DNA from: Isoetes taiwanensis
Lineage: Eukaryota > Streptophyta > Lycopodiopsida > Isoetales > Isoetaceae
Assembly (NCBI GenBank): GCA_021234155.1
Contig: JAJEKV010000011.1
Coordinates: 15,640,441 to 15,704,440, forward strand
Reading direction: 5' to 3'
Length of the DNA: 64,000 bases
Part shown: positions 26,435 through 52,112 of the stretch, piece by piece
Position numbering within the stretch: position 1 is the stretch's first letter
Layout of the letters: the number at the start of each line of letters is the position of its first letter
Position numbers and translations under genes: made by a program
Notes under the pieces: model-generated
What the model was told of the DNA's origin: nothing
Databases searched by the model: none
What the model saw: the letters and a program-made list of their open reading frames with translations, nothing else

Positions 26435-26526
26435 TGATTCTGTAGTAGTTTTTTGGGTTAATTAACTAAATGTAATATGTATAGTAAATCTAACTATGAA
26501 ATGTTTCTTATAGAACATATTAATCT

Positions 26527-26574: not shown

Positions 26575-26679
26575 CAAAACACTAGACAATTAACATTCGT
26601 CCTTAAAAAAAAAAACAATTGTGAAAGTAAAAAAGTTTTTTATTCCAAAAAATATATATATAATGAAGCTTTATAAAAG

Positions 26680-27186
26680 CTATCCTGGTAGGACTGGTAG
26701 CAGTGGTGCATGTTCAATAATTACTGTCATCTGTACAATGTAATCTAATTTATCTGGATTCATGTTTATGATCATCAACAGGCAGTTCATTTTGGCCTCC
26801 ATCATTCCTGAATGGTGGGTCCTCAGACTCTCTAACAAGTCTTTTTGTCCAGGTTTTAGGATTGAGAAATGGCTCAAAACAAATTTAATGCCAATAGATG
26901 CAGCTGCATGGAGGACTACATCTGCAATCTGCGCATTAAACTCGGCTTCTGTTAAGCCTGCCACTTGCTGCACCGTACTTCCACATCCATCTCTCTCCTT
27001 AGAGACAGGGAGGAGATGGTCGAACTTCTTCACCAACCTGTTGAAATCCCGGAACAATGTTGCTTCCGGGATATCTCTATGGAGTGCCCTGTCCCAGGCT
27101 TTGGTGAGTCTCAAGGCCAAGCCTCGCTCGTGCACATGACCACGGTTGGTAGCATCGACATGCACCAAACCGGTTTCATAACCCAT
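26680..27186 (-). CDS. unrecognised 168-aa protein
   Basis: A complete frame from ATG 27186 to a stop at 26680. The protein starts MGYETGLVHVDATN, has charged helix-like stretches (LFRDFNRLVKKFDHLL; LTEAEFNAQIADVVLHAAA) and ends in PLLPVLPG. No catalytic motif, signal peptide or membrane segment is visible. It lies between two palindrome clusters and is convergent with the gene at 25459-26434. It may be an accessory protein of the same mobile unit. The opposite-strand frame at 26762-27139 is a shadow. Confidence 0.4.
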   Translation of the reverse strand: MGYETGLVHVDATNRGHVHERGLALRLTKAWDRALHRDIPEATLFRDFNRLVKKFDHLLPVSKERDGCGSTVQQVAGLTEAEFNAQIADVVLHAAASIGIKFVLSHFSILKPGQKDLLESLRTHHSGMMEAKMNCLLMIINMNPDKLDYIVQMTVIIEHAPLLPVLPG

Positions 27187-27314
27187 TGAGAAAAAAAACT
27201 GCAGAGATTGGAATGGCGAAATGATATTTGTACTTATTCAACAAATACGAAATTGGAAATGTGCTACGAAATGGGATATCTGGTGACGTGTCTAAATGGG
27301 ATACTTTTGTATGA

Positions 27315-27423
27315 GTCGCGCCTAGCGCGACATATCTGTACTTGGTAAATTAATATAACTTTCTTACGTATTTTACAAAATTATGGTCCATATGTGTCGC
27401 GCGCACTGTCGCGCGTAACGCGG
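27315..27423. repeat. CGCG-type palindromes upstream of the DUF7869-like gene
   Basis: 'gtcgcgcctagcgcgac' at 27315-27331 is a near-perfect hyphenated palindrome. A second group at 27395-27423 reads 'gtcgcgcgcactgtcgcgcg' and 'taacgcg'. They lie directly before the exon starting at 27504, so they are intronic or in the upstream region. Confidence 0.75.
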
Positions 27424-27503
27424 TATAGTCATTGTATAAATATTTCATTTATTGTTATTGCATACAATACTATGTTTTCCTCAACTTTTCTTCTAATTTT
27501 CAG

Positions 27504-30540: not shown

Positions 30541-32500
30541 TTATAGAATGATGAAGAAATTCCAGGCAGTCTATAAATGTCTATAAAATCTACTTAAAAA
30601 AAAAGAAACTTTCCATAATCAAATGGAACTCATGAATCTTAACAATGTTGGCTCAGAAAAATCGGTTATCTACAATTTTTAAAATAAATACATTCAACTT
30701 TGCATGGGTCCTACATAGTATAAACAATTGTATATAAATGTAGTTTTTATATTTATCTTAGATATGATTTGAAACATGAGACTCACGCAAGAGAAAGATA
30801 GAATTAATAAAATAGAATAGAATAGGATTTTATCGTCCACAGAGACCAACACTTGATTATGTCTTTAAAAATAATATTTGCAGCTTAAATAAATGATTCT
30901 ATTTTGGTGTATCCTTTTGTGTTGCTTCACCCAAGGTTTATATTATGAAGTCATGTGTATGAGGTAATGTCACAAGGGACTTTCCAAAATATATTTAAAA
31001 ACTTCATAGGCCAGGTTTAAAAAGATAGCCAAATAACTAAGGTATGCCCTTCTTTCTTTCCATTCTTTGCAGTTTTCTAGTATAGGTTCATGGAATTTTA
31101 TTTTGGGGTTCTTATGATTGGCATGAGCCCAGGTTAAGGTGTAGAATGCACGAAATTGCCTCCGCTCGGCCCATTACATAGGAAAATATTTGGTTACATG
31201 CTATTTTGAGGAGCTCGTGCATTAACGGGTTCAATAGACCCTTACCCCATGTAATGGCATGTGATTGAACATTATCCCCAACATATTTATTCAAATAAAA
31301 GGTTCATATGCCATGTTATGAGTAACTGCATTGTGCCATCTTTTTTTCTTTCTGATTCTTTGTGGTTTAGTACACGGTGATGGCATTTGCTTTGGGGTCC
31401 TTATGATGGGCATGAAGCCAGGCAAGGTGTAGAATGGCCACATCATGGAAATGGATACAGTTCCTATTGCAATCGACATGTGGCAAATGCGTCATCATGC
31501 GCCATCGAATCCCAGTTGGGTCGTACAAGAATGTCGACAAAATTTCAGGCAGTCTGTAAATGTTTATAAAATGCAGTTAAATAAAAAATAAACTCTCCAG
31601 AATTGCATGGAATCTTCACTCATATTGTCACAAAACTTAACAATGTTCGCTCATAAAATCGACTGCCTACAATGTTTAAAATATATATACATTTAACTTC
31701 TTATAGGCCCTACATAGTATAAACACTTGATATATAAATGTAGTTTATCTCATATGATTTGAAACATGAGACTTACGCAATAGAAAGATAGAGTTATAAT
31801 GGAATACTTGATTTTGTCTTTAAAAATAATATTTGCCACTTAACTAAATGATTCTGTTTTAGTGTATTCTTTTGGGTTGCTTCACCCAAGGTTTATATGA
31901 AGAAGGTTATGTGTATGAGGTATAAGAATGTCACAAGGGGCTTTCCAAATTATATTCAAATAAAAGCTTCATAGGCCATGTTTAAGAGGATTGCCGAGTA
32001 ACTAGGGCGCACCTTTCTTTCTTTCCATGCTTTGCAGTTTTCTAGCATAGAGTCATGGAATGTTATTTTTGGAGTTCTTATGATTGGCATGAACCCAGGT
32101 CAAGGTGTAAAATGCATGAAATCGCCTCTCATCGGTACATTATGTAAGAAAATATTTGGTTACATGATATTCTGAGGACCTCTTCTATTCTATTCTATTA
32201 ACAGGCTCATCAGACGCTTACCCCACGTAATTGCATGTGATTGAACATTATCCCCAATATATTTATTCAAATAAAGGTTCATATTCTAAGTAACTAGAGG
32301 GCCTTCTTTTCTTCTTTCTGATTCTTTGTAGTTTGGTACAGGGTGATGGCATTTCACTTTGGAGTCCTTATGATGGACATGAAGTTAGGCAAGGCGTATA
32401 ATGGCCACATTACGAAAATAGATACAATTCCTACTGCAATCAACATGTCAGCAGACACATCATGGTGCGCCATCGAATGCCAGTTGGATTGTACAAGATG
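30541..32500. repeat. ~1-kb repeat in two tandem copies
   Basis: Copies run about 30541-31530 and 31530-32500. Shared landmarks: 'ttaacaatgttggctca', 'gttgcttcacccaaggttta', 'tgtgattgaacattatcccc', 'tcaaataaaaggttcatat' and the 'tggcatttgctttggggtcc' type end. An inverted third copy lies at 52230-53010. No coding frame; a non-autonomous element or satellite is likely. Confidence 0.85.
30803..30857 (-). mobile_element. 3' tail of a LINE/SINE inserted in repeat copy 1
   Basis: On the minus strand: 'ggtctctgtggacgataaaa' followed by (TTCTA)n, as in the LINE remnant at 4861-4895. The other copies of the host repeat (31.8 and 52.9 kb) lack this stretch, so it is a true ~50-base insertion consisting of the element's extreme 3' end. 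Confidence 0.7.
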
Positions 32501-32559
32501 AAAATTCTGGGATCAAAGGAATGCAACCACCCAATTTCCTAGAGAATATATGGCACATG

Positions 32560-32950
32560 GACATATCCACCACTATGGGTGTATACATGGTAGAATGTGA
32601 CATTTGGTGTATGTTGTGTGGTGTATGGTGTATGGCGTGTGCTATGTGTTGTGATGCTGTATGTTATGTGGTGCATCATGCATGGTGTATAGTATGTGCT
32701 TTATGAAATATGGCATGGCATGAGTCTAGTATGGTCTGTTTGGTGGATATAATGTGCGCATGGTATGGTGTGGTGGATGGTATATACACAACAATAAGGT
32801 GCTCAATATGGTGAATATGATGTGTGTGGGGCATAGTGTGCTACATGGTGGGGTGTGGTGCATGGTATGTAGACCGCACTCAGGTGCTCAGTCTTGGATA
32901 TATATGATGTGTGTGGTGTAGTGTATGGGTGTACATGTCATAACAGTTTA
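32560..32950. repeat. degenerate TG-rich tandem DNA
   Basis: Irregular repeats of 'tggtgtatggtg', 'gtatgttatgtgg' and 'ggtgtggtgcatgg' fill the segment. No gene. Confidence 0.7.
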
Positions 32951-35640: not shown

Positions 35641-35765
35641 AGTTCAAAAGTGAGAGGATATATTAGATTGTTGGAGCGGGGGCTAATGAGAATGACCTAC
35701 AAAACTGTTATTACAATGCAATTCTCAAACCATCATCCAATTAAATTAGGATTATGTCAACTCCA
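35641..35765. repeat. copy of a ~110-base repeat also at 48206-48315
   Basis: 'agttcaaaagtgagaggata' ... 'gattgttggagc' ... 'ctacaaaactgttattacaa' aligns with the later copy in the same orientation. The 'attgttggag' centre resembles the border of a copia-type LTR, but no second border is visible. Confidence 0.6.
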
Positions 35766-36044
35766 AAATCACGCCAACCTGCTGTTGTCTTCTAGGGGGT
35801 TTTTGTTTTTTTTAATCTTTTTTTTTGGACTTAAAAAATAACATAAGGTTGCGATTCACGTGTGACGTTTCATATGCGAATTGAAATATGCAAAAATGAA
35901 GAGCAAGTTGCTAACATAGATGAGACCAAAATTGAAGAGCATTTAGATGATAATATTAGGTTTGATAATAACAGATTGCATTATTTGCTAGGCAATTCCA
36001 GACTCGAAATTATCGATACATGGCACAAATATCATACAAAAATA

Positions 36045-36699
36045 TCATATATTCCAATAAAACATTAAGGGATCAATCCATGTTTTTCCGTATTTAACAA
36101 GGTGTGGTTCCATGTCAGCTGTTCTATCCAGTTCTGGATATGAATCTAACACTTCACCCATCGTCATCCCCATAGCTAAATTATGCATAATAGACACAAA
36201 CTTCACCAGAAAATCATCTGTCGCAAAGTTTTTTGGATCGTAAGATGGTGGATTTAGGGCCTGCGTTTGATTGTAGAAGCATTTGAGAGCATCATCATCC
36301 ACTATGATTATATCATCCTTATTCTCGATACCAAGTTCGTCCATCATGTTACTCAAGTGTTTGATGAAGATAGGCTTGCCTGTTGGATCCTTGGGATTAG
36401 TGAACTTCACACATTTGTTCTGATCCCAAAAGGTCAACCAATGTCTACGCATTTCCCCCAGTGCCTCCAAAGTATCCTTGATGTTCCTTAGTTCTATGGA
36501 TGACCAAATACCAACTCGAAATAACCTGAATACCTCATCTAGCATCTCCTTCAAGTGCGGCCGCGGATAGATCCACTTGGTGTTTGATTCTACTGGTGTC
36601 TGATGAAACTGATCTCTAGCCACTTTATTTTTCGGAAAAGTCTTGCAAAAGACTCCGTTTAGGTCGAACACCACAACCTTCTTAGAAACGCAATGCAAG
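36045..36699 (-). CDS. FCP1/NIF-type HAD phosphatase-like domain, last exon
   Basis: The exon follows an acceptor 'gatgtttcag' and ends at a stop at 36045. Residues near the start read KKVVVFDLNGVFCKT, the HAD motif I site with D-x-N instead of D-x-D, so the general acid/base Asp is replaced. FRVGIWSSIELRNI supplies motif II, FWDQNKC and PIFIKHLS follow (Lys of motif III), and IIIVDDDALKC gives the motif IV acidic pair. This order matches the NIF/FCP1 family, some plant members of which also have D-x-N. The exon joins the preceding one in phase across a 211-base intron (36700-36910), so it appears to be the C-terminal domain of the ParB/methylase gene. A separate captured host gene is the alternative. 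Confidence 0.65.
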
Positions 36700-36756
36700 C
36701 TGAAACATCAAACATGTATCTGGTCAGCAAGATACGATAACACAAACAATACAAAC

Positions 36757-36900
36757 GCGCCAAGCGTGCTTTGAGTTAGTCTTAACCAAATCGCGCTCGG
36801 CGTGATTTAGTTTGACAACGAAAAATAATCAAAGCACGCCTGGCGCGATTTAATCCAAAGGTAATACAAATTAAATCACGCGTGGCGCGATTTCGTGGGC
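36757..36900. repeat. intronic palindromes of the CACGC/GCGTG type
   Basis: Within intron 36700-36910: 'cgcgccaagcgtgc', 'atcgcgctcggcgtgatt', 'gcacgcctggcgcgatt' and 'tcacgcgtggcgcgatt'. All have the form YCRCGC-nnn-GCGYGR with mixed half sites. Confidence 0.75.
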
Positions 36901-36910
36901 AAGGCCATAC

Positions 36911-38868
36911 CTATCATCTTCGGGTTTATTTTGCCGTCGTCGGGCGTCATTCTCCCCTTCGCCACCCTTAATCTTCGTGCTCTTCTGACTGTTAGAATTG
37001 TTATTTTCTATTAGTTCCGCTGCGTCCTTCACAACTGACATTATTTTACTATTGATTTGGCAAACCTGTGAATCACTAGAGTCGCCTTGGTTGCCTTCAG
37101 TTTTGGTTGCCCTGTCAATTAGTTCATTGTTAACCTGTGAATCTACTCTATTGTTGCTTGCATCACCCTGAAGGGAGGCAAGGATATTCCCTAAGTTCGC
37201 CGCGATCACATTACTTTGAGCAGCCCTGCTTTCCTTATCAGGCTGCAGATTCGAAAGTGGACGATGGTTCCCTCACCAGAACCATCGTCCACTTTCGAAT
37301 TGGACAAGTCTACGAGACTTTTGATTGCTGATGATTTCAGGTTGCCATAAGGGCCTTTAGGAGATTTGGCAAGCACATGCATGAGGAATGGTTCAAGAAA
37401 GTCTTTGGCTTGCTGATCACTCACAAAGCAGTGACATCTTCTAACACCCGTAAGAGCCTCTCGGGCAATATAACCTCCAACATGAAGCTCCAAGCAGGTT
37501 GTATCAATTGGAGCAAATGCCTCGACGAGGTAAGCAGCCATAGACGAGGGAAATCCATTTTTATTTAAGGGGCCCTTCTCCTTAGTTTGTATCTCGTACT
37601 TGATTTCCCCACTTAGGAGGGGGTCCCGATCCTCATCCTCTTCTGACTCATCCTGTTCTGATTGATCCTGATCCGTATGATAGAATATAGTTCTTAAGTC
37701 TAGATCATCTAGAAGAAAACATTCCCATGCACTGCTATTGTCACCCTTGGCCTTAGCAATATCATATTCCTCGTCTGACAGCATGGCTATCATAATAAAG
37801 ATCACATGTGCCATCTTCCGTTCTGTTCGCAGCTCATTATCCTTAACATCATATATTAGGCATCCCTCCCTAATAACTTTGAGGCACTCCAGATCATGAG
37901 CAGCGGATAGTGCATGCAGATGTGATCACCTGAAGGACAAACGATGACAATAGTGAAGAATCTCTCAGTTGTCAATCCTATACAGCTGGTAAAGAAGCTG
38001 TTGTAGTCCTTCTGGTTCATGCCCATATCTCCTCTCCCACCCCTGCTGTCCAACACAAAGAGTGATATATTTTTAAGGCAAGAAGTTGATTCTGGCAAGA
38101 GACCTTTGTACCCAAAACTGAATACTGGACAGTGTCTTCTTCTCTAGTAATCTTCTTCACAAGGGCCACTTTTCTTCTCAACTCGGCCAGTACCTTAGGG
38201 GGTAGAGTCTCCTTATATTTTGTATTTTTAGCCTTCCAATTCTTTAGGAAGTCCTTTGACCAGAATACAAACTTCTTGATGTCATCATTACTGACCTTGT
38301 ATTTATCCAGCAATCCAATTTCAGATAATGCCACATCCCCCGATAGCCTTTGTAACTCAGCTCCTACAACTGACTTCATTGTACGTACATCCTTCACATG
38401 GCTGCAGGACATCCTATCCTTAGTGAAAGCACTCTTCTTGTATAAGACTTCCTTCTTTAAGCACTGGTCTAAAACCCAAATGGTCTCAGCGTCGTCTAGC
38501 CCCTGAGTCTTTCTCATCTCTGTCACATTCAAGTCAAAGATGCTTACATCAACAGGAGGCACCCTACTCATAGTATCAGGCAGCTTCCCTTGTGCATAAG
38601 CATCCCAGAATTCATTCCACTTTTGCCATACTTCCTCCTTACAAAACACAATCTTATACGAGTCTGTTGGGCCTGACCTGCTAGATGAGCTTTCAGAAGG
38701 AGCTTTGATTTTCTTGCAGTTTTCTTCTTCTCCTGTATAATTGTCTGCGACAGAGTCCGCTCCAGCAGCTTGAAAGCCTCAGACTTTGACCCGCCCTGTC
38801 TGGTGGGTAATGGGCAGCCATATTCCACCCACTGTTGACGGGCGTGGCGCAGTTGCTCCACGTATGGA
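36911..38868 (-). pseudogene. DNA-methylase-like region of the ParB/methylase/HAD gene (broken)
   Basis: The exon begins after 'ttttggtag' (38869-38870) with VEQLRHARQQWVEYG and ends at a donor at 36911. It changes frame near 38700, 38110 and 37925 and again at a 50-base palindrome (37250-37299). LFVLDSRGGRGDMG at about 38040 may be a degenerate motif IV (the usual D/S-P-P-Y/W is not intact). AAYLVEAFAPIDTTCLELHVG and GVRRCHCFVSD at about 37480 match the motif X/I region of N6/N4 adenine/cytosine methylases, where an AdoMet loop precedes 'GR..-hE.D'. An acidic tract (DESEEDEDRD) sits between them and a Ser/Asn-rich linker follows. The domain order IV then I is that of permuted (beta-type) methylases. 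Catalysis is unlikely now. Confidence 0.5.
37250..37299. repeat. perfect 21-bp palindrome with 8-base loop in coding sequence
   Basis: Arms 37250-37270 and 37279-37299 are exact inverted copies (start ttcgaaagtggacgatgg). They lie where the methylase-like frame breaks. Removing the 44 bases between the two TTCGAA sites would put the frames on either side in register. Confidence 0.9.
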
Positions 38869-38904
38869 CTACCAAAAGTACATGCATTGAATCAGTATCA
38901 GAGA

Positions 38905-39295
38905 CAAGAAACACGCCGGGCGCAATTTTAATAGAAAAGATCAACCTCAAAGCACGCCTGACGTGAAATGAATTAAATACCAATGCAATTCACGCCAGGC
39001 GTGCTTTCGAATCGGTTGAATTCACGCCAGGCGTGCTTTCAAATGAAACCAAATCACGCCAGGCGTGCTTTCAAATCAAATCAATTCACGCCAGGCGATA
39101 AAGCACGCCTGGCGTGAATTGATTTGATTTGAACGCCTGACGTGAATTGATAAATCAAATCAATTCACGCCAGGCGTGCTTTATCGCCTGGCGTGAATTG
39201 ATTTGATTTGAAAGCACGCCTGGCGTGATTTGGTTTCATTTGAAAGCAGGGCTGGCGTGAATTGGTTTCATTTGAAAGCACGCCTGGCGTGAAGA
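38905..39295. repeat. array of 13 CACGCC-n-GGCGTG palindromes forming a larger inverted repeat
   Basis: Inside intron 38869-39328. Cores lie near 38911, 38953, 38991, 39022, 39055, 39087, 39104, 39134, 39165, 39185, 39215, 39248 and 39278; the best copies read TCACGCCAGGCGTG. Spacers such as 'ctttcaaatgaaaccaaa' alternate with 'ctttcaaatcaaatcaat'. The left half (from about 39010) is repeated in reverse order and complement by the right half (to about 39293), with the centre near 39130-39150. The result is a nested palindrome next to the ParB-like exon. Confidence 0.92.
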
Positions 39296-39328
39296 TTAAA
39301 ATGCTAACATCCTAATGCAGTCAATTAC

Positions 39329-40469
39329 CTTTTGTATAGAAATGTCTTCCCCATTTCATTCAAAGTTGCACTAATCTCAGCCAAATCTGCAGGTGAAGTA
39401 TTGGCATCCAAGAGACGACACCTCCTATACGCATAGTGATTGTAGAACACGCTTTGGCCCATTTGTTCTGCCTGCCTAATGAGGGCCTTTTGTGCCTCAA
39501 CAGAATGTTGCCCGTCGATGATGACGAATTTAATGTTATCATTTAACATTAACTCCTCGAAGTTCGTCCACACAGCAGGCTTGTTCGAGATCATATCCCA
39601 AGGTAACACATCCGCTGGCATAGGCATTTGACCTGGCTTACTAATCATGCTCTGAACAATCTCCATGGCATGTGCAGGATCATATCTTCTGCTAACATAA
39701 ATGGAGCTTGGTAAACGGATGAGGGACTTCACATGGATCGCAAAAGTTTCCTTAAGACCCAATGGATAATGGTCAGCGTACTTATTCCGCTTGTTCATGG
39801 CCTCTAACTGCGCCACTCTGTCCTGTTCATTCTAAAAAACAGAAGCCTCCATGCCTTCGACAACTGCAGGAAGAACATCCTTCCCTAGATTTAGGACCCT
39901 CCTAGAAGCTTTCAAGTCAGCTAATTCCCTAGCTTGCTGCAAATAGTGACTTGGTGTCGGTTTAGTGAACATGCCTCTACGCACAGCTGTAACCCCTTGG
40001 CAAATAGATATTGGCGTAACCGCTACATTGGTGGGCCAGCCATACTTAAAACATGTCTCAACGTTCACATCTGTCTTCATGAACGTATCCTTGTATGCGG
40101 TAGCTCTACAATGAGTAAGTCTGAGCAGATCTTTCTTCTGCCTATGTGTAATCTCTAAGAGCAATTTGCAGTTGGTGTCATCCTCTTCCTCACAAGAGAT
40201 TAGGATCCCTTGTTTGGTCATCTTTTCTGCTTTTTTTCCTCGAGAAAAGAGTCAAGTCGAGCTTGCCATTTGTCTTGGCAAGGTCAACGTACCACTCGGC
40301 ACCCTCGTCCATTTCCTCTTCAGGGTAGGCAGGGTCAGTGGTTACTCTATAAGAATCGGCCCTTCGTCATCTAAGGTGAGATCATATGGTACTGCATCTG
40401 GGTCGTCTACCCTAGGTTTCTTGCCAGGAATAGAACCCGAATTATTAGGGGTTTTCTTCCTCTTGGGCA
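39329..40469 (-). pseudogene. ParB-like (DGQH) domain exon of the broken gene
   Basis: The exon starts after 'cttcttttgcag' with PKRKKTPN, an SV40-like nuclear signal, and ends at CAAAAG|GTAATT (39329). A frame change lies near 40340, and TAG at 39832-39834 interrupts one otherwise continuous frame from 40221 to 39325. Upstream of the stop is a charged domain; downstream, IYVSRRYDPAHAMEIV and then KFVIIDGQHSVEAQKALI match the ParB/Srx fold, whose DGQHR-type signature marks a nucleotide-binding site. In phages and bacteria ParB-like domains are often fused to adenine methylases, as seems true here. Splicing to the next exon across intron 38869-39328 is in phase. The gene is dead but its architecture is readable. 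Confidence 0.62.
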
Positions 40470-40509
40470 CTGCAAAAGAAGAACATTTTTTAGAGTACTT
40501 TTCAGAACA

Positions 40510-40566
40510 AGAGATCACGCTTGGCGTGCATTTAAACCTAAATTAGTACAATTCACGCTTGGCGTG
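40510..40566. repeat. two palindromes in intron 1 of the ParB-like gene
   Basis: 'tcacgcttggcgtg' near 40515 and 'tcacgcttggcgtg' near 40553, a T-T centred variant of the array at 38905-39295. Confidence 0.8.
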
Positions 40567-40897
40567 TTGGTAGCTCCTATTACGAACCATGCTATGCATG
40601 AATTTGAAACTAAATTAGTTTGCATCCACATTTTAATCTACATACCCTTTATGAATCCATATTTCACACTATTTAACCTCATTGAACATTGCTATCTCCA
40701 ACTGTCTAACACTGCTATATTCTATAAAACAGAGCAAAATTATGTTCTACAAAACGGACAATAAGAGCATTAACTGATGGTAATACTTAAAATTCATGCA
40801 AAGCATAATAACTCAAACTCATGCAAAGCATATTAACAGAAGGCAAGGAAATAACTCAAATTCATGCAAGCATAATATTATGTGGCAAATTAAATAC

Positions 40898-41018
40898 CTT
40901 GAATAGGAGGGGTCTGATCAACGTCCTCTGAAACTTGAGATGTGCCGGGTTTTGAGATTCCTCTTCCACCGCTTCCTCGTCCCCGTCTGCCTCGACCTCG
41001 ATTCGTTTTAGACGACAT
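40898..41018 (-). CDS. first exon of the ParB/methylase/HAD gene, RG-rich
   Basis: ATG at 41018 opens MSSKTNRGRGRRGRG and an RGxG-rich stretch, then a short acidic/Pro segment, ending at ATTCAAG|GTATTT (40898). Joining to 'gcag|TGCCC' at 40469 keeps the frame and continues into PKRKK. RG-rich plus NLS start suggests nucleic-acid contact in the nucleus. The 428-base intron holds the two palindromes at 40510-40566. Confidence 0.6.
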
Positions 41019-41836
41019 CTCCGGAGTCGCCTAGTAACAGAGTCGGACGGTCGCTCGGATACACGCTCGAGCTGCTCGAGAAATAGCTGGCAAGAAACAG
41101 CTTTTTCTACCTGTACAAGAGAAATTTGAATTTCAAGAAAACACAATATGCAGTTTCGAAATATTCTTGACATATAAAAATAATAATGATGAAGATTCAC
41201 TTTCAAATAAAAAAAAAGAACCCGTCCGTCGACTTCTTTCATTGAGTTTTTAAAAAGCAATCTACAGTGTTCTTGCATTGATTACATTTATCCCGTCTAA
41301 ATGTAATTAACCTAAGCTTTCTTCTAACTCGAATTTTTCCCGACCGCCTGAGTTTCCATAGCGCCTGTGATTTCGAGAACTCGAGTCAGCTTCTCAAGAA
41401 TGGCTACAGAATTCTGGTACTCATCTCATTCCTATAGCTTGAACATTTATTTTCAATAGTAGGTGTCTGAATAGCAATTGTCTGCAGTGTCGAAGATGAA
41501 TGTTTCATGTTAACTACAAATCAGAAAAGGAAAGTAGGATTATGCAAGATCGACTCCATCGATCCGACTACAAACTGTCATGGAATTCCGCTCGGGGATA
41601 AGTATGTCCGAAATTCACATGATTAATCTTTGCGCTATGGATGAAGCTTTACCTTGCAGACACCCCAGTGGGGATACGGTTGGAGAAAGTGTTGGAACAT
41701 TTGTTGCATGGCTAAGAAACCGCTTAAAAAAAGGTATGTAACATGCGTATTCATTGGAAAAAGTTTACAATTGTATATAATTTGGATAATCTGGATAAAC
41801 CAGACAAAATCCCAGACTACTGTTTCAAGCCCAGTC
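41019..41836. other. upstream region of the ParB-like gene, no other gene seen
   Basis: It should hold the promoter for the minus-strand gene. An A-rich stretch at 41205-41230 and 'ctcgagctgctcgag' near 41066 are visible. No clear TATA assigned. Confidence 0.35.
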
Positions 41837-42276
41837 TACTGAGTAGCTGGGCTATCGATACTCCCATTTCCATTCCAAGGCATAGTGAATGGATCAGGTA
41901 AAACCCCAGCAAAAACCCAAGGCTCTAGCTCTACCTCCCCCGCCTGCTCCACCTCCTGCTCCTCCTCCTGCTCTATCTCCTGCTCCATTGGTTGAGCCAT
42001 CTCCATTGCATCATTATGTCACTTTGTGGTAGTGGTTAGGTGTTGGGGCATCCCGGCATAGAGGCTAGCCACTAAGAAACGCAGCTTCTCATTTTGAATC
42101 TCGAGCTGACGGTTGCGAGATTCACTCTCGATCAATGCATGTACTGCATGATCGAAGTGATCACATAAGAGGGCCAGCCTCCGTGAGATTGCAAGGGCCT
42201 CAGAGCCCAGATTTATAATTGCCCTGTGCTCTGCTGCCATCATCATTACTTGATCCAAGTACTGCGGGGGTTGCAA
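41837..42276 (-). CDS. short coiled-coil protein with one in-frame TGA and an E/Q-rich tail
   Basis: From ATG 42276 the frame reads MQPPQYLDQVMMMAAEHRA and a helical, probably coiled-coil region (ESRNRQLEIQNEKLRFLVA) to a TGA at about 42019. The same frame stays open past the stop into a Glu/Gln-rich segment starting at ATG 42000 (MAQPMEQEIEQEEEQEVEQ), which ends at TAG 41837. Either a nonsense mutation split one gene or two short frames lie in tandem. Similar coiled-coil genes accompany the mobile genes at 22.4-23.0 and 57.8 kb. The plus-strand Pro/Ala-rich frame is a shadow. Confidence 0.42.
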
Positions 42277-42609
42277 GGCCGGTGCTCCACCCAGGCCGGT
42301 GCTTTCGGTTGCGGTTCAACCGGACCGAGATTGGAGCCGAAACCGAGCTGGGGGGCCGTGTGATTGCTGCCCCAAATGTAATTCCAATGCATCTTCGTCA
42401 CCAACCGGGTGATTAATGTAACTTGGCATCTATCAATAGGAAGTGAGCCGTATCGGTATTCCACGTCCCGGGGCGTGTTATATTTATTTATTTATAAACT
42501 TAGAAACTAAGAGACACGCGTTTTTAACTTAAAAGTTGAAACTAGGGATAAAATTGTTTGCACACTCAGCGTGTAAACTGCTATATAGGAAAAAAAAATA
42601 TACAGCTTT

Positions 42610-42772
42610 CGGCGTGCATTCATGAGAGGGAGAAAAAGAAATCGTGCAGATAGATAAGTAAATAGATAAAGGCCAGGCAATTATAAGCGTATAAATAATT
42701 GCCTGGCCTTTATCTATTTACTTATCTATCTGTACAGTTTCTTTTTTCTCCCTCTCTGCTGAATGCACGCCG
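42610..42772. repeat. large palindrome with CGGCGTGC ends
   Basis: Arms of ~75 bases face each other around 'ataagcgtataaat' near 42690. The inner 35 bases (gataaggcc type, 'tagataaaggccaggcaatta') match perfectly. The outer ends are 'cggcgtgcattca' and its complement. Weaker pairing continues to hyphenated palindromes at 42560 (cactcagcgtgt) and 42815 (acacgctcagcgtgtt). Confidence 0.9.
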
Positions 42773-43087
42773 AGCATGTATTCATATTCAAGGCTAAGGT
42801 TAGCATGGAACACGCTCAGCGTGTTTCAAATATTATCTTTGAGATTTTTCTAATGCTTTCTACTGCACTTATTCATAATAGAAACTTGCATGCAATAGCA
42901 TGATTAATTCAGGAAGAGAAACTCAAGAATTTACTCGAAACAAAAAGAAGCAGATGAAGTTTATAAAAAACTATTCTGGTTTTCATAAACATCATCTGCT
43001 TCCTTTGCCTCGAGCAAATGCAAAAGCTTATCTTCTTGGATTAAACCTGCCATTGAGATGCAGCTTAAAACTAAATGAAAACTAACC

Positions 43088-43352
43088 TTGAGTTCTGAGG
43101 CTGGAAGGATTCGAAGAACGGAGGACTTTGCTTTTGGTTTTAATTCCGAGGCTTTTGGATTCGCAGACCTTAATCCTCTGCTTTTGGTTTTAATTCTGAG
43201 CCTCCGATGTCCTCTGCTACAGATGCTACAGAACAAAAGGCGGAGTCTTTTAGTAAGTTAGGAATTGCCGAAACCAAACATCTAACATTGCTGAAAAGAA
43301 ATCTGCTCACCAAGATTTTAGGAGGGCGGATGCAAACACAGCTGAAGCACAA
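43088..43352 (-). CDS. small gene fragment with ELKPKA repeats
   Basis: Read on the minus strand below a TATA-containing promoter. A frame containing GGSELKPKAED is followed, in other frames, by repeats of the same phrase (SELKPKA, ELKPKAKSS), reflecting a DNA repeat 'cttttggttttaattc' at 43130 and 43180. A donor-like CTTG|GTGAGC lies near 43312. The exons cannot be fixed and the product is not recognised. Confidence 0.25.
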
Positions 43353-43394
43353 CCGGCAAATCGTATGAAGAAAGAAAGAAATTGTAGGAACTTT

Positions 43395-43560
43395 GAGAGC
43401 GTGAAATGGATTTATATAGGCATAATTAGAAATAAATTAGCGTGAATAATTGATTGCTTGAATTAACACGCCTGGCGTACGGTCTTCCCGCCAGACATGA
43501 CATGTATATGGTATATATGGAGAATATTGCATTTTATGCAATAAATTCTCACGGCATTTT
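43395..43560 (-). promoter_or_regulatory. minus-strand promoter copy 1 with ACGCC-n-GGCGT operator-like site
   Basis: Read on the minus strand: a 'cgtgagaatttattgc' start, 'acgccaggcgtgtt' palindrome (43468-43481), 'attattcacgctaattt', then TATATAAATCC. It is homologous to 44446-44585 over its full length, including the palindrome ~50 bases above the TATA box. Confidence 0.7.
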
Positions 43561-44000
43561 ATTCCATTTATTGCATTCGAAAACAAAGAATTTCGAAATT
43601 TTATATAGGCTAAATTAAAAATGATTTTAAAGGCAAAATTATCAAGGCTAAAAAATGACTTGTTGAGTTGGGGAATTGTTTTTGGTCATATAGGAAAATT
43701 TCCTATACTGCTGTGATGAATCAGAGATTTCTCATGTGGTTGATTTATAGTGTTCCCGAGACTTTGTTGAGACAAATGCAGAGACAAAATTTTAGAGAAA
43801 ACACTTTGGAGACAAAATGCTTGGAGAAAACAGTTTGATTTCATTCAAAATATTTTTATGTACAGAAAAACTATTTGAAGAAAAAGTTTGTGAAGAAAAC
43901 TATTTGATTTCATTCAAAATTGATATGTACAGATGCCAAGAATGGCTTGTAAGTACATGCCCGAAGGCTTTTCAAAATATCACAGAAAAAAATGCCCGTA

Positions 44001-44407
44001 GGCGTGTCCAAAAAAAAAAAAAAAAAGAGGGCCACCCGGGATCTACATCACTGTTCTTCCATGTCTGCCATTAGAAAAAGAAAAGAGGCAGTCATGCAAA
44101 CCTGCTTCATCCTGCAACCATTGTACAAATTGGTCGAATTCTCGACCTTCTTCGGAATCTTCTTCTGCCTCCTCCTCCTCCTCCTCCTCCAGAGAATTCA
44201 TTCTCTAATCCAGGGTCATGAATTCCTGAGAATTCATCTCCTCCTCTTCCTCCAACTCCTCCTCTTCCTCATCCTCTAAATCGGAATCAGAGGAGAATTG
44301 GGACAAAAAATCAATAGGGGAAACAGAGGGGCTTCTTCAACCCGACGTCTCTTTGAGGAGACCTCGGGTTCTTCATGAAGGTTTGACGCTGAGGCCGAAC
44401 GCTTCAT
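44001..44407 (-). CDS. acidic protein with N-terminal nuclear signal
   Basis: ATG at 44407 opens MKRSASASNLHEEP and SSKRRRVEEAP (likely NLS). After one frame change near 44310 the frame continues as FSSDSDLEDEEEEELEEEEE, has a TAG near 44205, and continues with another Glu run and EFDQFVQWLQDEAG. The gene sits 40 bases below promoter copy 2. Acidic and NLS-bearing, it could be a transcription-type regulator or accessory factor; function is not recognised. The frame breaks suggest decay, though an unrecognised intron is possible. Confidence 0.4.
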
Positions 44408-44445
44408 GGCGGGCAGAGAAAAAAAAATTGGAAGGAATGGAGCTT

Positions 44446-44585
44446 GAGAGCGTGAACCGGATTTATATAGGGTTAATTAGAAATTAGCGTGAATAATTAA
44501 TTGCCTCAAATAACACGCCAGGCGTACGAAATTCCCGCCAACTATATCATCTAGGGTATATTATTATGGATAATAAATTCTCACG
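44446..44585 (-). promoter_or_regulatory. minus-strand promoter copy 2 with ACGCC-n-GGCGT operator-like site
   Basis: Same order as 43395-43560: 'cgtgagaatttatt', 'acgcctggcgtgtt' (44512-44525), 'attattcacgctaattt', then CTATATAAATCC about 60 bases above the ATG at 44407. Conservation of the palindrome in both copies hints at a binding site. Confidence 0.7.
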
Positions 44586-44871
44586 TCTAGGCCATGTCTT
44601 TTCGTAATCATATATCCAAATTTTCGATAATTAAAATTTGGATATATTTATATAAATGTCATTTCCATGTTGTTGCCACGAAAATTCTTGTTTTAAATGA
44701 TTTCGTTTACACCCATTGTTATTATTATATTAAACCTATTTCCAAGGAATTTCTTGCTTTTAAAAAAATTTGATTTACCTCTACATATTCCATAAATGTA
44801 CGTACTTTTCTTATCTTATGGTGTAATAATTTTTTCCTACTCATTGACTAAAAAGGGTGCAATTTGCCTAG

Positions 44872-47737
44872 GTCAATGGTGCCTCTCCAACTCAAGATGG
44901 TGTGCAACATATTGAAAAGAGAAATATCAATGAAAAACCAACTCCTAGCAAGAATGTTGAAGAAAAACAATTAGTCCTCTATAGTAGGGTGCAATGGAGG
45001 AACAAGAAGGTGAGAATCATGCACAAGTGCAACAAGGAAATAGTAGGCCAAGGAGTCATTGTGCTAGCAGATCCTGGTCAAACTGTTAATGATGAAAGGC
45101 TAGGGGAAGACAATATTGGTATTGCAATTTCGATGTTGGAAGACAACTGGAAAGGTAAAGGTTTGGGTGACAAGGAATGTTTTGGTTGTGTCAAGCAATT
45201 GGAGGTTCCTTGCATCATGGCATGGCCTATAAGTAGTGTTCAATTTGTGGAGGATTATATTTTTCTAGAGCCTGAGGTTGTTGGGGACAATGATTGTCTT
45301 GATATTGATCCATTGGCAGTTGGAACTCTAAACCTAGGCAAAAGGAGAGAAGTATCAGTTGCCAGACATTATCCTAGCAAAAGAGCCAAGTTGATTAGTG
45401 ACACCAAACGTGAGACAATGGCAAAGATTAGGGGCTCAGAGTGTTGTTGGAGTGGTTGTATGCAATTCTTTACAATAGAACAATTGGTGGAAGCAAGAGC
45501 CACTTTTCAAGAGTATACTGTTGATGAGAGGAGGACCTACATGTACACAATCTTCGAGCATGCACTTCAGGATGAAAGAAACCCAAATAGAAAAAGATAC
45601 CCTTTACTAGGCAAATGGATATGTCCAAAAGCATGGCAGAATATCCATGCAATTCCAAGTTCTTCATGGCATAATTGGCAAAAAAAATAGGCAGAGGGGA
45701 ACATGATTGCTTTACATGGAAATAATGGTTTGTTGAGACCAACAACTAGGATCTTGGCTGCCAGGGAGATATTTAAAAAATATATTGATTTCAATGCAGA
45801 GCAGAAGGGATGAAAAGGGAAGAGCAGTTGTTGAGAAAAGGTTACCATCACATTGTACTCAAAAGAGTATTTTGGAAGAAGTGAATTTCCTACTTCGAGA
45901 ATTGGGAATTCTTCCAATATCCCAACCTAGCTTTAGTAGGCTATGGAAGAAGCATTTCAATCATGTCACCATAGCAACTTCAAACAACTTTGCAAAGTGC
46001 AATTTATGTGCTAAGTTGAAGGAGACTCTTGATAAGACTGTGCAACCTAGTCAAAGGGCTAGGATAAGGGAGCATATGAAGGACCATATGACTGACCAAC
46101 TATCATGTAGATCATGTTATTGGATGTAGAGGACTTTATCTGCATTGGAACCTAATAACTATTTATGTATTATACATGACAAGATGGACCAGCAAAAGAC
46201 TTGTCTTCCACAATTCAAGTACATATCAAAGTCATGTGGAAGATCATACCCTTTACAGATCTCAATGACTGGGGCAATCTTGCATGGGCAGACTCAAACC
46301 TACTATGGCCATTTTAGTTTGGAGTTGTGGAGTGATGGTCCAGATTTTCATATTGGGAGTATCATGAGGTGTTTGAGAAACTATGAAAATGGATACAATG
46401 GTCACCTCCAGGACCCTACAGCTAGCCAGGCACTACATAGAGCATTGTTAGATGGAAACCCTAACAATATTGAAAAGTTCAGCAAGGCAAGGTTTAGGAA
46501 GCATGGGTCTAATGAACATGTTGGAGCTTCAACTTCATGTGCTAGAGCTCAAGATCTACCCAAAAGGTTCCTCTTGCAACTTGATAATTGTGCTGGCCAA
46601 AATAAGAACAGGTCTATCCTACTTAACAGCTGTGGGGATATTTGAAAGAGTTAATTTAGGGTTTCTTATGCCCGGGCATACCCATGAGGATGTGGATGCA
46701 TTATTTGGCAAATATAGTTGTATCTTGAAGCGTGAGACAGTCACCAACTTTCCTAGGCTAATGGAAATCTTGCATGAATGCACTACTCCAAACCCTATAG
46801 CTTCTCTCATAGAAGAAGTGCCCGATTGGAAGAGCTTTGTGGATGGTTATACATTGGATCTTGAAGGTCATTCCAGGCCTCTGCAGTTCACTTTTTGGGT
46901 GAGAGATGGGATTCCAATCTTCCAATGGAAGATGAGACCTTCAGAGGAGGAGCGGAGAGGAGGGGAGGAAATATGGCGTAGAGATGAGAATGGCAAGCCT
47001 ATGATACCTCCAGGTCAACCAAAAGCTCTAAAACCTACTGAAGAAGTGAAGCAATTGGGATTGACTAAGGAAGGAATCGAGGACTATATAAAGCATTGGC
47101 AAACCAATCCAGATGACACCAACCGTGCCTTGGTGGCTTACTGGAAGAAGGTGATTAACCTCCTGTTGGGGGAGATAGACACATCCTCAGATGAATTGAA
47201 AGAAGGGTGGTTGCCTAAAACTAGGTGGAAGACCTTAGCAGGTGCTGAGGATGTTGATGACATTGTTAGTAGCATTCGTAAGCAATATGCTCCTCCTCCT
47301 TCTGACAAACACTATGTTGGTCCTAAGAACAATAGGCCAAAGTTTCTAGGCATGGATGCTTATGAACCTTCCACTGACTTGGAATGCCACCAATTTGTGG
47401 TAGTAAAGCCAGCAGATTTAGATACATATCCAGTGTGGTTGGGGTTCACTATTTCTGATATTTGCAAAGAAGAAGGTAATATTACAACCATGTGCGGGTA
47501 GAATGGTGGTGTCCAATGCATCAGTTGACCAACGTATCGGATAAAGAAAGGTACTCAGATTGTTGGACAAAGAGATGGAGAAGAAATCCGAGTGATCCTG
47601 ATCTTTGGCTAGACTATGAAAGTGTTTTGTACTCATGGACTCCAAACACTATTCCAGCTAGAAATGCGAGAATTACAATACCTCAGGATGTCAAGAAGAA
47701 GGCTATGATATCATTGGGGTTGCTTGAAGAGAGTTGA
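44872..47737 (+). pseudogene. DUF7869-like transposase candidate, copy 2 (few lesions)
   Basis: The exon begins after 'gcaatttgcctag' and is readable to TGA at 47735. Blocks in order: RVQWRNKKVRIMHKCNKEIV, KRREVSVARHYPSKRAKL (NLS-like), CCWSGCMQFFTIEQLVEAR (C-C-x3-C), SHCTQKSILEEVNFLLREL, AKCNLCAKL, EPNNYLCIIHDKMDQQKTC (first Asp), LELWSDGPDFHIGSI, RFLLQLDNCAGQNKNR (second Asp) and FLMPGHTHEDVDALFG (third acidic). Only about four lesions are visible: a frame change at an A-run near 45685, TAG at 46127 where copy 1 has TGG, and frame changes near 46610 and 47490. It is thus younger than copy 1 (27504-30470). A DDE-type nuclease role is inferred from the acidic triad. Confidence 0.72.
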
Positions 47738-50369
47738 ATAACTATGTAAATTTTTTTCATCACGTTTATATGATATGGTGCTATATTGTGAAATATTGAC
47801 TATTTTGTAATAATATGAGATTACATTTTCATACTTTTGAGGTGGTTTGTGTGAATTTGAATATGCTATAAAAAACATACAATATGAAATTTGTCCCAAA
47901 ATTAAGACATAATCCCAATTTAATTGAATGATGGTTCTCATGCTATTGTTAGCGTACACCCAATGATGGCATAGTTCAAAAGCTCCTATGAAATTGTTGC
48001 TACAATGCAATTCTCCTGTAGATTGTAGATGTCCACCTCAATGATCGCATAGTCCAAAAGCTCACATACAATAATTGGCAAATTGTGAAGTACTATGATA
48101 ATGGAGGTGATAATGTTGAATGGAAGACATATCAATATCAGCCTTTTGTCATGTAGCAGGAGAGCATGAAGAAACTCTATTGCATTAAAATGTTTAAGCC
48201 ATTGGATTAAGCTTTCAAGTACAAGGTTCAAAGGTGAGAGGATGTGTCAAATTGTTGGAGGAAAAGCTAAGGAGGTTGTCCTACGAAACTGTTACAATAG
48301 CTAGATAATATTTTTACGATGCAATTCTCTTGTTGATGGTTGATGCACATTTCAATGTACATCAACTACTGTTGTTACAATGCATTTGTTGTGTTATTCT
48401 TGATGTACACCTCAATAATCGTACATATACTTCAGAAGCTCACGTACAACTTATTCTTGTTGGTTGATGGAATAGGTAATTTCTGCCAATAGATTGTTTC
48501 GCGGCGAAAGCCCTGTCGAGCGGCAGCAGCTGCGAGCTTGGGCGTGCGTCGTGAAACTTTCTATCGGCAAAAATTTCTTAACGAAAAAATCGAAGGCATG
48601 CTATTTCTGGCGTGCCAAAAGTATTTTCCAGCATGTTTCCAGTCACAAAAATCAGCACGTCATCGACGATTACTTCTAATTAGGCGAAAACGTGGAAATA
48701 GGAGGTGGGCAATTTTCCGTACAACTGAGTGTACATCAAATGTGGTTACAATGCACTTGTTGTGATGTACACCTCAGTGCTTTTGTATAGTTGGAAAGCT
48801 CACGTACAATAATTGGCAACTGGTAAGAAGTACTATACTACTATTGATGGTGGTAAGAGGGAGGTTATCAGCCAATGAAAGAAGTCCCAATATCAGCCCT
48901 GATGTTGTGTATGTTTTCTGCTAAGTATAAGTAGCAGAGAAACTCCGTTAAATCTCCATCAAAAGAAGCATTGAAGGCAGCCTGCAAAACACGAGGACTT
49001 TGATAACAAAGTGGCCACGCCCCACTGACGTCATCTCTGTGTCTGCAAAGAAAAAGAACGCTGCAGGAATCTCCGTCATCTCTGCGCCATTTGACGTTAG
49101 ACCTTCCAACAAAAAAAAAAAGGGTTTGGTAGACGGACCTCAGCTGCTACTAACTGACATCAGCACTCATGTCCTTTGGATCCAGCAGCCCATTAAATTA
49201 TTTGCTTACAACATTAAATTATTTGCTTACAATTGCTTTTCTGCCACACTACCTTGCACGTCTCATGCTTGATGCTGTGTTTTTTATGCCTTATCCATGC
49301 CCTGATTAACCACCCTTTTTTACCAGATTACTTACCCATTTCCCACATGAAACTTATTCTAGATGCATATGATATCTGAATAATTTTCAAACACTTACAA
49401 GAGTACATCTTGAAATAGTGTAAAACATAAGGGTATCTAATATTATGGTCCACATAGTAAAATTGAAAACAGTATCTTATGCCAACTTAGTTGTTTCTGT
49501 TTCACTCAGACCTGATCTATCTATCTTGGGACAAGTTGCTTCCTTTATGTAGTGCTATAATTTGAGAGAGTTCTGACCCAACACAGATCTGGCTTCGCAT
49601 GGAGATGCCGCGCCGACGGTCTATTCAAGAATTCTGACTGTATCAGTCTAGAAATTGAAGGAAATTCTAGATCTGATCCTTTATAGCCTAGTTATGGCCT
49701 CATCCACAGTGTAAAAATGGATCTGTCCATTTGTAACCGTGCAAGTGCTTGAACTAGACTAGAGTGTTGCTGCAGATAGATGCAGTTTATTTATATATAT
49801 ATAGTCCTTTTATTTTGTTTGCTGTTATATTTTTAACTGTGCACTGTCACCAGGACGATCTAGACAAAAACAATTGCTTATTTTGAGGAAATAGTGAGCA
49901 TAAAGTTTCGTTCTTATGTTAACTATAATTTTGCGCTGAAACAGTATAAGTAGATCTATCCAAATTATACATAAGTCAACATGATTTTGCCACAGTAACA
50001 TAGATCCTCCTCCAGGATATAGACTTTATAAATAAAAAAGCAGAAGTAGAACAGTTTAATCATAATTGCAAACACTGTGTGGAAATTTTGTAAACAGTAG
50101 AAAGATTCTCCACAACAGGCCACTTCCAATTTACTTAAACAGCAAGGAAACTTGAACCAGGCGTATAACTCTGATATAATTTATGTAACAGTAAGTCTGA
50201 CAATATTTTTGCAGAAAAAATTGCACAAAGTGTGCTCTACACTTTCTCTGATCTTACAAACCATGAAGAATTTTGGGTGGCGTTATTGTACAACAAATTG
50301 GCAGCTTACTGCAAGCAAATCTGGTAAAAAATGAAATTGTAATATAGTACAGACAGAGAAGACGAATTG
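47738..50369. other. AT-rich intergenic DNA with small repeats, no firm gene
   Basis: 48206-48315 repeats 35641-35765. A GC-richer patch at 48494-48765 has two overlapping short frames with no resemblance to known proteins. 49197-49232 is a short tandem repeat (attaaattatttgcttaca). Nothing else stands out. Confidence 0.5.
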
Positions 50370-51000: not shown

Positions 51001-51155
51001 TTCTACCTACCTTGTTACCTAACACCTGAGTTAAATGTGGACACTTTACAATTGTATACACACCCCATAGCGGTGGATATGTCCATGTGCCATATATTCT
51101 CTTGGAAATCGGGTGCTTGGATTCCTTTGGTTCTAGTATTTTCATCTTGTACAAT

Positions 51156-52110
51156 CGAAATGTTAGGGTAGGCCACATTTCTTGTTATTATCATCTGTTT
51201 TACATCCTATAATTTTCTCTGAGTTTCCTGTGACACCTGGCAGGGTGCTAGTGCCAGCTGTCCTAGCTAGTGCCATCTGGCTCAAAAATTTCCTCTATGC
51301 AAACCGAAAAGGCAAAGAACGCCCCAAAATATGAAGCTTTGTGCAAATATAAAATGCAAATAAGCCATAAAGTATGGAGCTCTGTGCAAAGGAAAATGCC
51401 TCCAACGGAGACTCCAACGGACTGGTCGAACTCAAACTACAGGGCACAAACAATTGGTCAAATCTCAAACACCGCAGGAGAAAGCCTGTATGCCAAAGAA
51501 AATCCAGAGCCGCAGGAGAAAGCCTGTATGCCAAAGAAAATCCAGAGCAATGCAATCGAAACCAAAATAAGCCAAAGAAAATCCGGAGCAGTGCAATCGA
51601 AACCAAACTAAACTCAGGCCGACTTGGGCCGGCCCAAAGAAACCTAAAACACTAATCTGCAAGAAAGCACAGAAAGCACAGAAAGAAAGAAAGAAAAAAA
51701 GGCTTGCAAAAAAGCACAGAAGCAAGAAAGAAAGTTCGGGATAGGCTTGCAAGAAAGCACAGAAGCAAGAAAGAAAGGTCGGGATAGCCTTGCATGTTAC
51801 TCCAACCGACAGAACTGTAAAAAAAGCACACGGATCAGTAATATTCAAGTAGAAACATGGAAAAATAACAAGAAGTCGTGATTTTACCTGAAGATGATGC
51901 TGGCGCCACTGAAATGATGCTGGCGCCACTCCAAAATCGAGGCGCTACCGCCAAAATCAGCACCAGACGCTCCGCAAAACACAAAAAGATGCTCCACTAA
52001 GCAAAAAAGTCGACGAGGAAGCTAAGCGCCTAAGGGAGCGCCATAGCCGACCTCGCCATAGCCAAAAATTCGGCCACACGTGCGAAATGTGGCCTACCCC
52101 TAACATTTCG
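51156..52110. mobile_element. ~955-bp TIR element, non-autonomous
   Basis: Left end 'cgaaatgttagggtaggcc' plus 'acatttc' and right end 'gaaatgtggcctacccctaa' plus 'catttcg' are inverted copies with one extra base. The interior has a 51-base direct repeat of 'caaagaaaatccagagc' phrases at 51470-51610 and purine-rich DNA without a credible transposase. No clear target-site duplication. Confidence 0.7.
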
Positions 52111-52112
52111 TG

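What the first reader, a model, noticed from the sequence alone, without database searches (positions are those of the whole stretch)
38905..39295. ParB-like gene with a parS-like palindrome array in its own intron
Thirteen hyphenated palindromes (best form TCACGCCAGGCGTG) are packed in the 460-base intron right after the ParB-like exon. Together they form one larger inverted repeat centred near 39130-39150. Intron 1 and the last intron of the same gene carry more of the same type. ParB proteins recognise palindromic parS sites, so a eukaryotic nuclear gene that pairs a ParB fold and a methylase-like domain with clustered palindromes could be a self-recognising element, for partition, silencing or targeted methylation. 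What is seen: the sites and the DGQH motif. The functional link is inference.
Basis: partly seen in the sequence, partly recalled or inferred. Interest (0 to 1): 0.9.

Follow-up and report, generated by a model that had tools for sequence, protein, structure and literature searches.

The report
Plant transposon with family-specific palindrome arrays
The palindromes are real, but they lie in a 12-kilobase jumping gene present in many copies in a plant genome (probably a quillwort); families of this element carry their own versions of the site inside their introns and beside one end, which suggests the element makes a protein that recognises its own DNA.

Summary
In detail: 13 near-identical dyads in a 460-bp intron, 2 and 4 in two other introns, none in the exons. 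The setting differs. The "gene" is half of a DNA transposon, window 35728-47936: 31-bp terminal inverted repeats (TIRs), perfect 4-bp target-site duplications in 4 of 4 copies read at both ends, and two divergent genes (DGQH/ParB-like plus NIF phosphatase; DUF7869). The genome (1.66 Gb, by size Isoetes taiwanensis) holds 2,989 exact TIR matches (reversed control 0). All 50 listed places (of 2,137 exact palindromes; no random-locus control) lie within 3 kb of element sequence. Sites persist in the same intron in families 48-60% identical in the DGQH part, where spacers differ. They co-diverge: family A TCACGCCWGGCGTGA, family D TCGCGCCWGGCGCGA, and a half-site 11 bp inside one TIR switches with them. 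That is the pattern expected of binding sites for an element-encoded dimeric protein. The ParB/Srx fold has only sub-threshold support; no methylase domain was found in gene 1. Best reading: operator- or end-type recognition arrays of a self-recognising transposon. The binder is unknown; the ParB-like product leads. Partition or methylation is not shown.

The parts
35728..47936 (.). complete 12,209-bp DNA transposon copy (family A), flanked by the 4-bp direct duplication CTCA
   Evidence: TIRs and flanks; alignments of 5 of 6 other copies stop exactly at 35728 and the sixth (L021) 4 bases further, with its TIR at the same place; both-end comparison
35728..35758 (+). terminal inverted repeat, NIF side
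   Evidence: inverted match to 47906-47936; 2,989 exact matches of the TIR pattern genome-wide against 0 for the reversed pattern
35767..35775 (+). terminal half-site AATCACGCC (CACGCC at positions 43-48 of the element, 11 bp inside the TIR)
   Evidence: genome-wide family-specific variants
47906..47936 (-). terminal inverted repeat, DUF7869 side (no half-site in the outer 150 bp)
36045..36698 (-). last exon of gene 1: NIF/FCP1-type phosphatase domain
   Evidence: Pfam PF03031, 52 bits against cut-off 21.8
36700..36910 (-). last intron with 4 dyads (36756, 36792, 36835, 36877)
36911..38868 (-). middle part of gene 1 (ORFs 36871-37209, 37206-37814, 37856-38098, 38017-38649 among others); frames interrupted in this copy
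38869..39328 (-). intron 2 with 13 dyads arranged as one 305-bp inverted repeat
39325..39816 (-). DGQH (ParB/DndB-like) part of exon 2
   Evidence: Pfam DndB 18.4 bits, below the 29.1 cut-off; PHROG ParB-like weak; weak structural rows
39832..39834 (-). in-frame TAG in exon 2 of this copy
   Evidence: 17 of the 150 scored matches have open frames of 386-408 aa without a stop in the match (counted by eye)
40470..40897 (-). intron 1 with 2 dyads (40516, 40554)
42561..44526 (.). region between the divergent genes with 5 dyads (42561, 42766, 42811, 43467, 44514) and further inverted repeats (42609-42773, 42893-43055)
44902..47501 (+). gene 2 (frames interrupted here): DUF7869 protein, presumed transposase
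   Evidence: Pfam PF25273 77.4 bits and 40.1 bits
24126..27422 (.). 7 dyads (up to 2 mismatches), best form TCGCGCTAAGCGCGA, in a second, very divergent element (family C) whose DUF7869-like matches span 27600-30265

Best explanation
The array is a set of recognition sites belonging to a two-gene DNA transposon. SHOWN: a 12.2-kb element with 31-bp TIRs and 4-bp target-site duplications; a 15-bp dyad TCRCGCCNGGCGYGA repeated in introns, between the genes and as a half-site beside one TIR; family-specific variants of that site. INFERRED: an element-encoded protein binds each dyad as a symmetric dimer. The arrays then serve as operators that autoregulate the two divergent genes and/or as internal sites that help gather or recognise the element's NIF-side end during transposition. 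The best candidate binder is the DGQH/ParB-like product of the gene whose introns carry the arrays, because the half-site sits at only one end whereas a transposase must act at both. Sites sit in introns because they cannot sit in codons. Partition, methylation and silencing are not shown.
For: Palindromes travel with the element: 50 of 50 listed places within 3 kb of element homology, site arrays masked. Motif kept while spacers change: A vs L010 intron 2; L010 7 sites vs 0.07 expected, L019 6 vs 0.02, L007 4 vs 0.05. Same intron holds arrays in A-like copies (L037 10, L038 10, L039 7, L040 11 sites) and in 58-59%-identical family D (L034 4, L035 6, L036 4), where both half-sites changed A/T to G/C together. 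Terminal half-site follows the family: of 100 listed NIF-side ends, 40 of 42 AAC-type have TCACGCC and 39 of 41 TAT-type have TCGCGCC (counted by eye); 1,238 matches in all vs 0 in the control. AAC-type ends belong to the 7 family A copies read at that end; TAT-type ends to family D (L042, L043 TCGCGCC; L041 TCGAGCC). RNA-level pairing is not favoured: G.U 16 vs A.C 14 at the variable pair.
Against: No binding was measured and the binder is not identified. Neither encoded protein has a recognised DNA-binding domain above threshold. Arrays can be homogenised by tandem duplication, and shared ancestry alone explains their presence in near-identical copies. Three of the 100 listed ends break the A/D rule outright (AAC with TCGCGCC twice, TAT with TCACGCC once), one TAT end differs at another base (C74), and one TGT end of 11 has TCACGCC. 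The six DUF7869-side ends read lack the half-site, so a role in end pairing would be one-sided. Spacings show no convincing helical phasing (R 0.34 over all 115 spacings, dominated by 32; 0.12 over 25 distinct ones). Family D rests on three introns and three NIF-side ends. No control with random loci was run for the 3-kb association.
Confidence: 0.55

Rival explanations
1. The DUF7869 protein (presumed transposase), not the ParB-like protein, binds the dyads; the half-site by the TIR is part of its end recognition and the internal arrays regulate it, as transposase-binding sites do in P elements.
For: Half-site lies 11 bp inside a 31-bp TIR, like the P-element 10-bp transposase site near its 31-bp TIR (PMC7776569 passages). 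Sites also occur beside the DUF7869-like gene of family C.
Against: The DUF7869-side ends read in families A (4) and B (2) have no CACGCC or CGCGCC in either orientation within 150 bp. No DNA-binding domain was recognised in gene 2 beyond a weak HTH hit, E 0.0065.
Confidence: 0.25
2. A host factor or the silencing machinery uses the arrays (dense symmetric CG and CWG sites), making them heterochromatin seeds or insulators.
For: The commonest dyads carry CG and CWG sites. Copies disagree with the window most at CAG/CTG (0.42/0.38 vs 0.137 overall; CCG 0.31 and CG contexts also raised; 17 loci), which may reflect methylated cytosines misread by nanopore.
Against: A single host factor does not predict family-specific site variants coupled to the terminal half-site. 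The disagreement was measured over the whole element, not at the arrays.
Confidence: 0.09
3. Inert intronic minisatellite: a palindrome-prone unit spread by tandem duplication without function.
For: 32-bp periodicity (33 of 115 neighbour spacings are 32); arrays differ in copy number between copies.
Against: Spacers diverge while the dyad is kept between families. Both half-sites and the terminal half-site change together. Sites also occur singly outside arrays: intergenic, and 333 bp from the NIF end in L042.
Confidence: 0.07
4. The dyads act as RNA hairpins in the introns (splicing control or dsRNA source).
For: The intron 2 array forms a 142-bp-arm inverted repeat.
Against: No strand preference for G.U over A.C at the variable pair (16 vs 14; that count includes intergenic sites). 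Sites also lie in intergenic DNA and beside the TIR.
Confidence: 0.04

Closest known systems
P element (Drosophila)
   Same: 31-bp TIRs with a specific protein-binding site a short distance inside and further internal inverted repeats (PMC7776569 passages)
   Different: P elements are 2.9 kb with 8-bp duplications; here 12.2 kb, 4-bp duplications, two divergent genes, and large arrays inside introns
Sola superfamily of DNA transposons
   Same: 4-bp target-site duplications and a DDD-type transposase, reported in plants among others (recalled from Bao et al. 2009; that paper is not held)
   Different: No sequence comparison with Sola transposases could be made; ParB-like and NIF genes in Sola are not known to me
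CACTA/En-Spm transposons with TnpA sites
   Same: Two proteins, one an accessory binder of repeated short motifs (recalled)
   Different: Spm motifs are subterminal at both ends (recalled); here they are internal, plus one end only, and TIRs begin AACCATCAT, not CACTA
Bacterial ParB-parS and DndB/DGQHR proteins
   Same: DGQH loop, order of strands and helices, weak HMM and structural rows; palindromic sites clustered near the gene
   Different: All family scores below threshold; no partner ATPase seen in the ORFs scanned; parS sites are not intronic arrays (recalled); host is a plant transposon

Membership tests
cut-and-paste DNA transposon (class II) | terminal inverted repeats at both ends | tested here: met
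cut-and-paste DNA transposon (class II) | fixed-length target-site duplication | tested here: met
   CTCA, CAAC, TTAT, GATG in 4 of 4 copies read at both ends
cut-and-paste DNA transposon (class II) | RNase H-fold DDE/DDD transposase | not tested
Sola superfamily | 4-bp TSD | tested here: met
   definition recalled
Sola superfamily | transposase sequence similarity to Sola TPases | not testable with these tools
   no Sola sequences at hand
ParB/Srx-fold (ParB, DndB) protein | profile match above the curated cut-off | tested here: not met
   DndB 18.4 bits below cut-off 29.1; weaker in L036, L038, L039, none in L010, L023, L034, L040; phrog_1033 in 3 of 10 members, best E 0.0039
ParB/Srx-fold (ParB, DndB) protein | ParB/Srx fold | tested here: inconclusive
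parS partition system | cognate ParA-type ATPase and partition activity | not tested
   no ParA was sought separately; none of the element ORFs scanned matched one
   no methyltransferase family for the gene-1 ORFs scanned; frames are interrupted, so a broken domain could be missed
NIF/FCP1 phosphatase | profile match above cut-off | tested here: met
   52 and 57.2 bits vs 21.8

The most novel reading that the evidence does not exclude
A eukaryotic DNA transposon has captured a bacterial-type ParB/DGQH protein together with its own parS-like sites. The protein loads at dyads in its own introns and spreads or bridges to the transposon end, forming a partition-complex-like assembly that marks element DNA as self. 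Site and protein co-evolve family by family, so each family recognises only its own copies among thousands.
Probability: 0.15. Interest if true: 0.88.

Novelty: new variant of a known kind. Interest (0 to 1): 0.6.

Why it matters
A very abundant 12-kb plant transposon with one binding-site dialect per family, readable both in its introns and at its end, is a natural experiment in protein-DNA co-evolution and in how related transposons avoid cross-mobilising each other. If the ParB-like product is the binder, it would extend a bacterial DNA-marking protein family to eukaryotic transposition.

Tried and rejected
Rejected: a lone nuclear gene with an intronic parS array (it is a transposon). Rejected: the inverted repeat 30752-32579 / 51064-52998 as this element's TIR (the true ends are 35728 and 47936). 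Disfavoured: RNA hairpins as the main function, and helical phasing of the spacings. A first DGQH model was too poor (pLDDT 44.5); a second with ten sequences reached 58.6. Foldseek against PDB and BFVD gave nothing at E<=0.001. No relatives were found in viral contigs for the DGQH alignment or gene 2, none in phages, and only chance-level hits in plasmids (3 records, E 2-3). PDB sequence searches with the DGQH part, the DUF7869 ORF and the NIF ORF gave nothing at E below 0.1 (0.001 for NIF). No TIR was found for family C. Of three stretches fetched for family D ends, L042 held the TIR, L043 held the half-site but not a recognisable TIR, and L044 matched nothing. Papers: DUF7869, no paper; DGQHR with transposon, 3 irrelevant papers; Isoetes genome papers (listing; PMC8566536 passages); ParB with eukaryotic, transposon etc., 16 papers of which 10 were listed, none of those relevant; 4-bp TSD listing; Sola1/Sola2 listing with PMC4455052 passages; Sola superfamily listing; Isoetes with transposase and TIR, no paper; subterminal/palindromic sites, listing with PMC7776569 passages.

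Full report
OBSERVATION. The 13 dyads exist at the stated place in a 460-bp GT..AG intron, 38869-39328, minus strand. They form one inverted repeat with 142-nt arms, 94% complementary. With CRCGCYNRGCGYG at up to 1 mismatch the window has 24 matches against a mean of 0.24 in 100 shuffles. At up to 2 mismatches it has 33: 19 in three introns of this gene, 0 in the remainder of 36045-41019, 5 between the two genes of the element, 7 in a second related element and 2 elsewhere.

WHAT IT IS. The first genome hit of the palindrome proved to be a degraded copy of the same gene. One search listed 50 places of 2,137 exact matches (the same pattern read backwards gave 1). All 50 fall in 23 loci that I fetched, and each of the 23 carries element sequence, though L014 only a fragment and L008 one short protein match. 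With the arrays masked, 25 of 50 places lie within 100 bp, 45 within 1 kb and 50 within 3 kb of it. The listed places are the first in contig order, mostly on small contigs, so this is not a random sample, and no random-locus control was run. Among copies reaching the NIF side, 5 of 6 alignments stop exactly at window 35728 and the sixth runs 4 bases further. The end is a 31-bp terminal inverted repeat, repeated inverted at 47936. In the 4 copies where both flanks were read the target duplication is perfect and 4 bp: CTCA, CAAC, TTAT, GATG; lengths are 12,209, 12,394, 12,423 and 11,625 bp. The TIR pattern has 2,989 exact matches genome-wide against 0 for the reversed pattern, and in the listed part many lie in opposite pairs about 12 kb apart. 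So this is a high-copy DNA transposon, of the order of 1,000 or more full-size elements (inference from the count of ends).

HOST. G000 has 1,658,258,908 bases in 1,110 contigs. Isoetes taiwanensis is reported at 1658.30 Mb in 204 scaffolds plus 909 contigs, nanopore-based (PMC8566536, passages). The identification is inference.

GENES. Gene 1 (minus strand, 41.0 to 36.0 kb) has an exon with a DGQH motif, a conserved middle part and a last exon with an NIF-type phosphatase domain, 52 bits. Gene 2 (plus, 44.9 to 47.5 kb) has DUF7869, 77 bits, the presumed transposase (inference from motifs and context). This copy has an in-frame TAG in exon 2. In one search (4,593 first-look candidates, the best 150 scored and listed) 17 matches have open frames of 386-408 aa without a stop in the match (counted by eye).

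WHY THE SITES LOOK FUNCTIONAL. (a) Position: the intron after the DGQH exon holds dyads in A-like copies (L037 10, L038 10, L039 7, L040 11 at up to 2 mismatches) and in family D, 58-59% identical (L034 4, L035 6, L036 4), and in L010 and L019, 59% and 48% identical in the DGQH part. Between window and L010 the local alignments of intron 2 are built around the dyad while the spacers differ. (b) Symmetric co-divergence: family A sites read CACGCC.GGCGTG (A at the variable position in 85% of half-sites over 150 sites in 14 loci), family D sites CGCGCC.GGCGCG (26 of 28 half-sites in L034-L036, counted by eye). (c) Coupling to the end: the NIF-side end carries CACGCC at positions 43-48, 11 bp inside the TIR, in family A (7 of 7 NIF-side ends read: window, L006, L009, L015, L021, L022, L024) and in L010 and L030 of family B. 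Family D ends, assigned to L034 and L035 by distance and orientation, read TCGCGCC in L042 and L043; a third, L041, reads TCGAGCC in error-rich sequence. Genome-wide, pattern TTATGTCNNNTCCAAAATCRMGCC has 1,238 matches against 0 in the control. Of the 100 listed, spacer AAC: 40 TCACGCC and 2 TCGCGCC; TAT: 39 TCGCGCC, 1 TCACGCC, 1 TCGAGCC; TGT: 10 TCGCGCC and 1 TCACGCC; TGG: 4 TCGCGCC; AAT: 2 TCACGCC (counted by eye). The six DUF7869-side ends read (window, L025, L026, L027, L007, L011) have no such half-site in 150 bp. (d) RNA pairing is not selected: G.U 16, A.C 14 at the variable pair, read in gene-1 sense over 20 loci including intergenic sites. (e) A still more distant element in the same window (family C; stretches 29-60% identical to gene-2 ORFs) carries dyads of the form TCGCGCTAAGCGCGA upstream of its DUF7869-like gene.

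MECHANISM. Shown: element, sites, co-variation. Inferred: a dimeric element-encoded protein reads the dyad. Because the terminal half-site is one-sided while a transposase needs both ends, I favour the gene-1 product over gene 2, but only modestly. The array in introns and between divergent genes suits autoregulation; the half-site by the TIR suggests a link to the transposition complex. P elements offer the nearest documented layout that I saw: 31-bp TIR, transposase site just inside, internal inverted repeats (PMC7776569, passages).

NOVELTY. A DNA transposon with accessory proteins and binding sites is a known kind. Family-specific intronic arrays coupled to a one-sided terminal half-site, with a ParB-like/NIF protein, I did not find described (open-licence papers only, listings). 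Superfamily placement is open; the 4-bp duplication recalls Sola (recalled, not tested).

CAVEATS. Many copies lie on small contigs with sequence disagreement concentrated at CAG/CTG (0.42/0.38 against 0.137; CCG 0.31), so their apparent decay is partly technical (inference). Mismatch limits vary between calls and are stated with the counts.

Noticed in passing
L005-L024 against window 35728-47936: Disagreement between copies is concentrated at the middle base of CAG/CTG (0.42/0.38 vs 0.137 mean), which looks like nanopore errors at CHG-methylated cytosines and would mean the copies are silenced.
   Followed up: partly
window 23040-30470: A second, much more divergent DUF7869 element (family C) with, read by eye, a truncated start of the same gene-1 exon near 23860-24058 and its own variant of the dyad; its ends were not found.
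   Followed up: partly
window 19967-21799 (-): 610-aa open frame with a very weak RAG1-like match (E 0.066), lying next to family C.
   Followed up: no
window 8700-19900: Repeats and ORFs (11187-12979, minus) that look like a DIRS-type retroelement; ORF 11187-12419 has sub-threshold RNase H and Dam methylase matches, so the only methylase-like hit seen in this window lies here, not in the finding's gene.
   Followed up: no
window 30545-32579 and 51033-53012: A repeat of up to about 2 kb present in opposite orientations on both sides of the transposon, partly duplicated in tandem on the left; not its TIR.
   Followed up: partly
window 36045-36698 (-): A plant transposon carrying an NIF/FCP1-type phosphatase domain, 60% identical in L010 of family B; role unknown.
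   Followed up: no
L007 4870-5095: In family B the intergenic dyads sit inside a larger inverted repeat of about 200 bp (read by eye).
   Followed up: no
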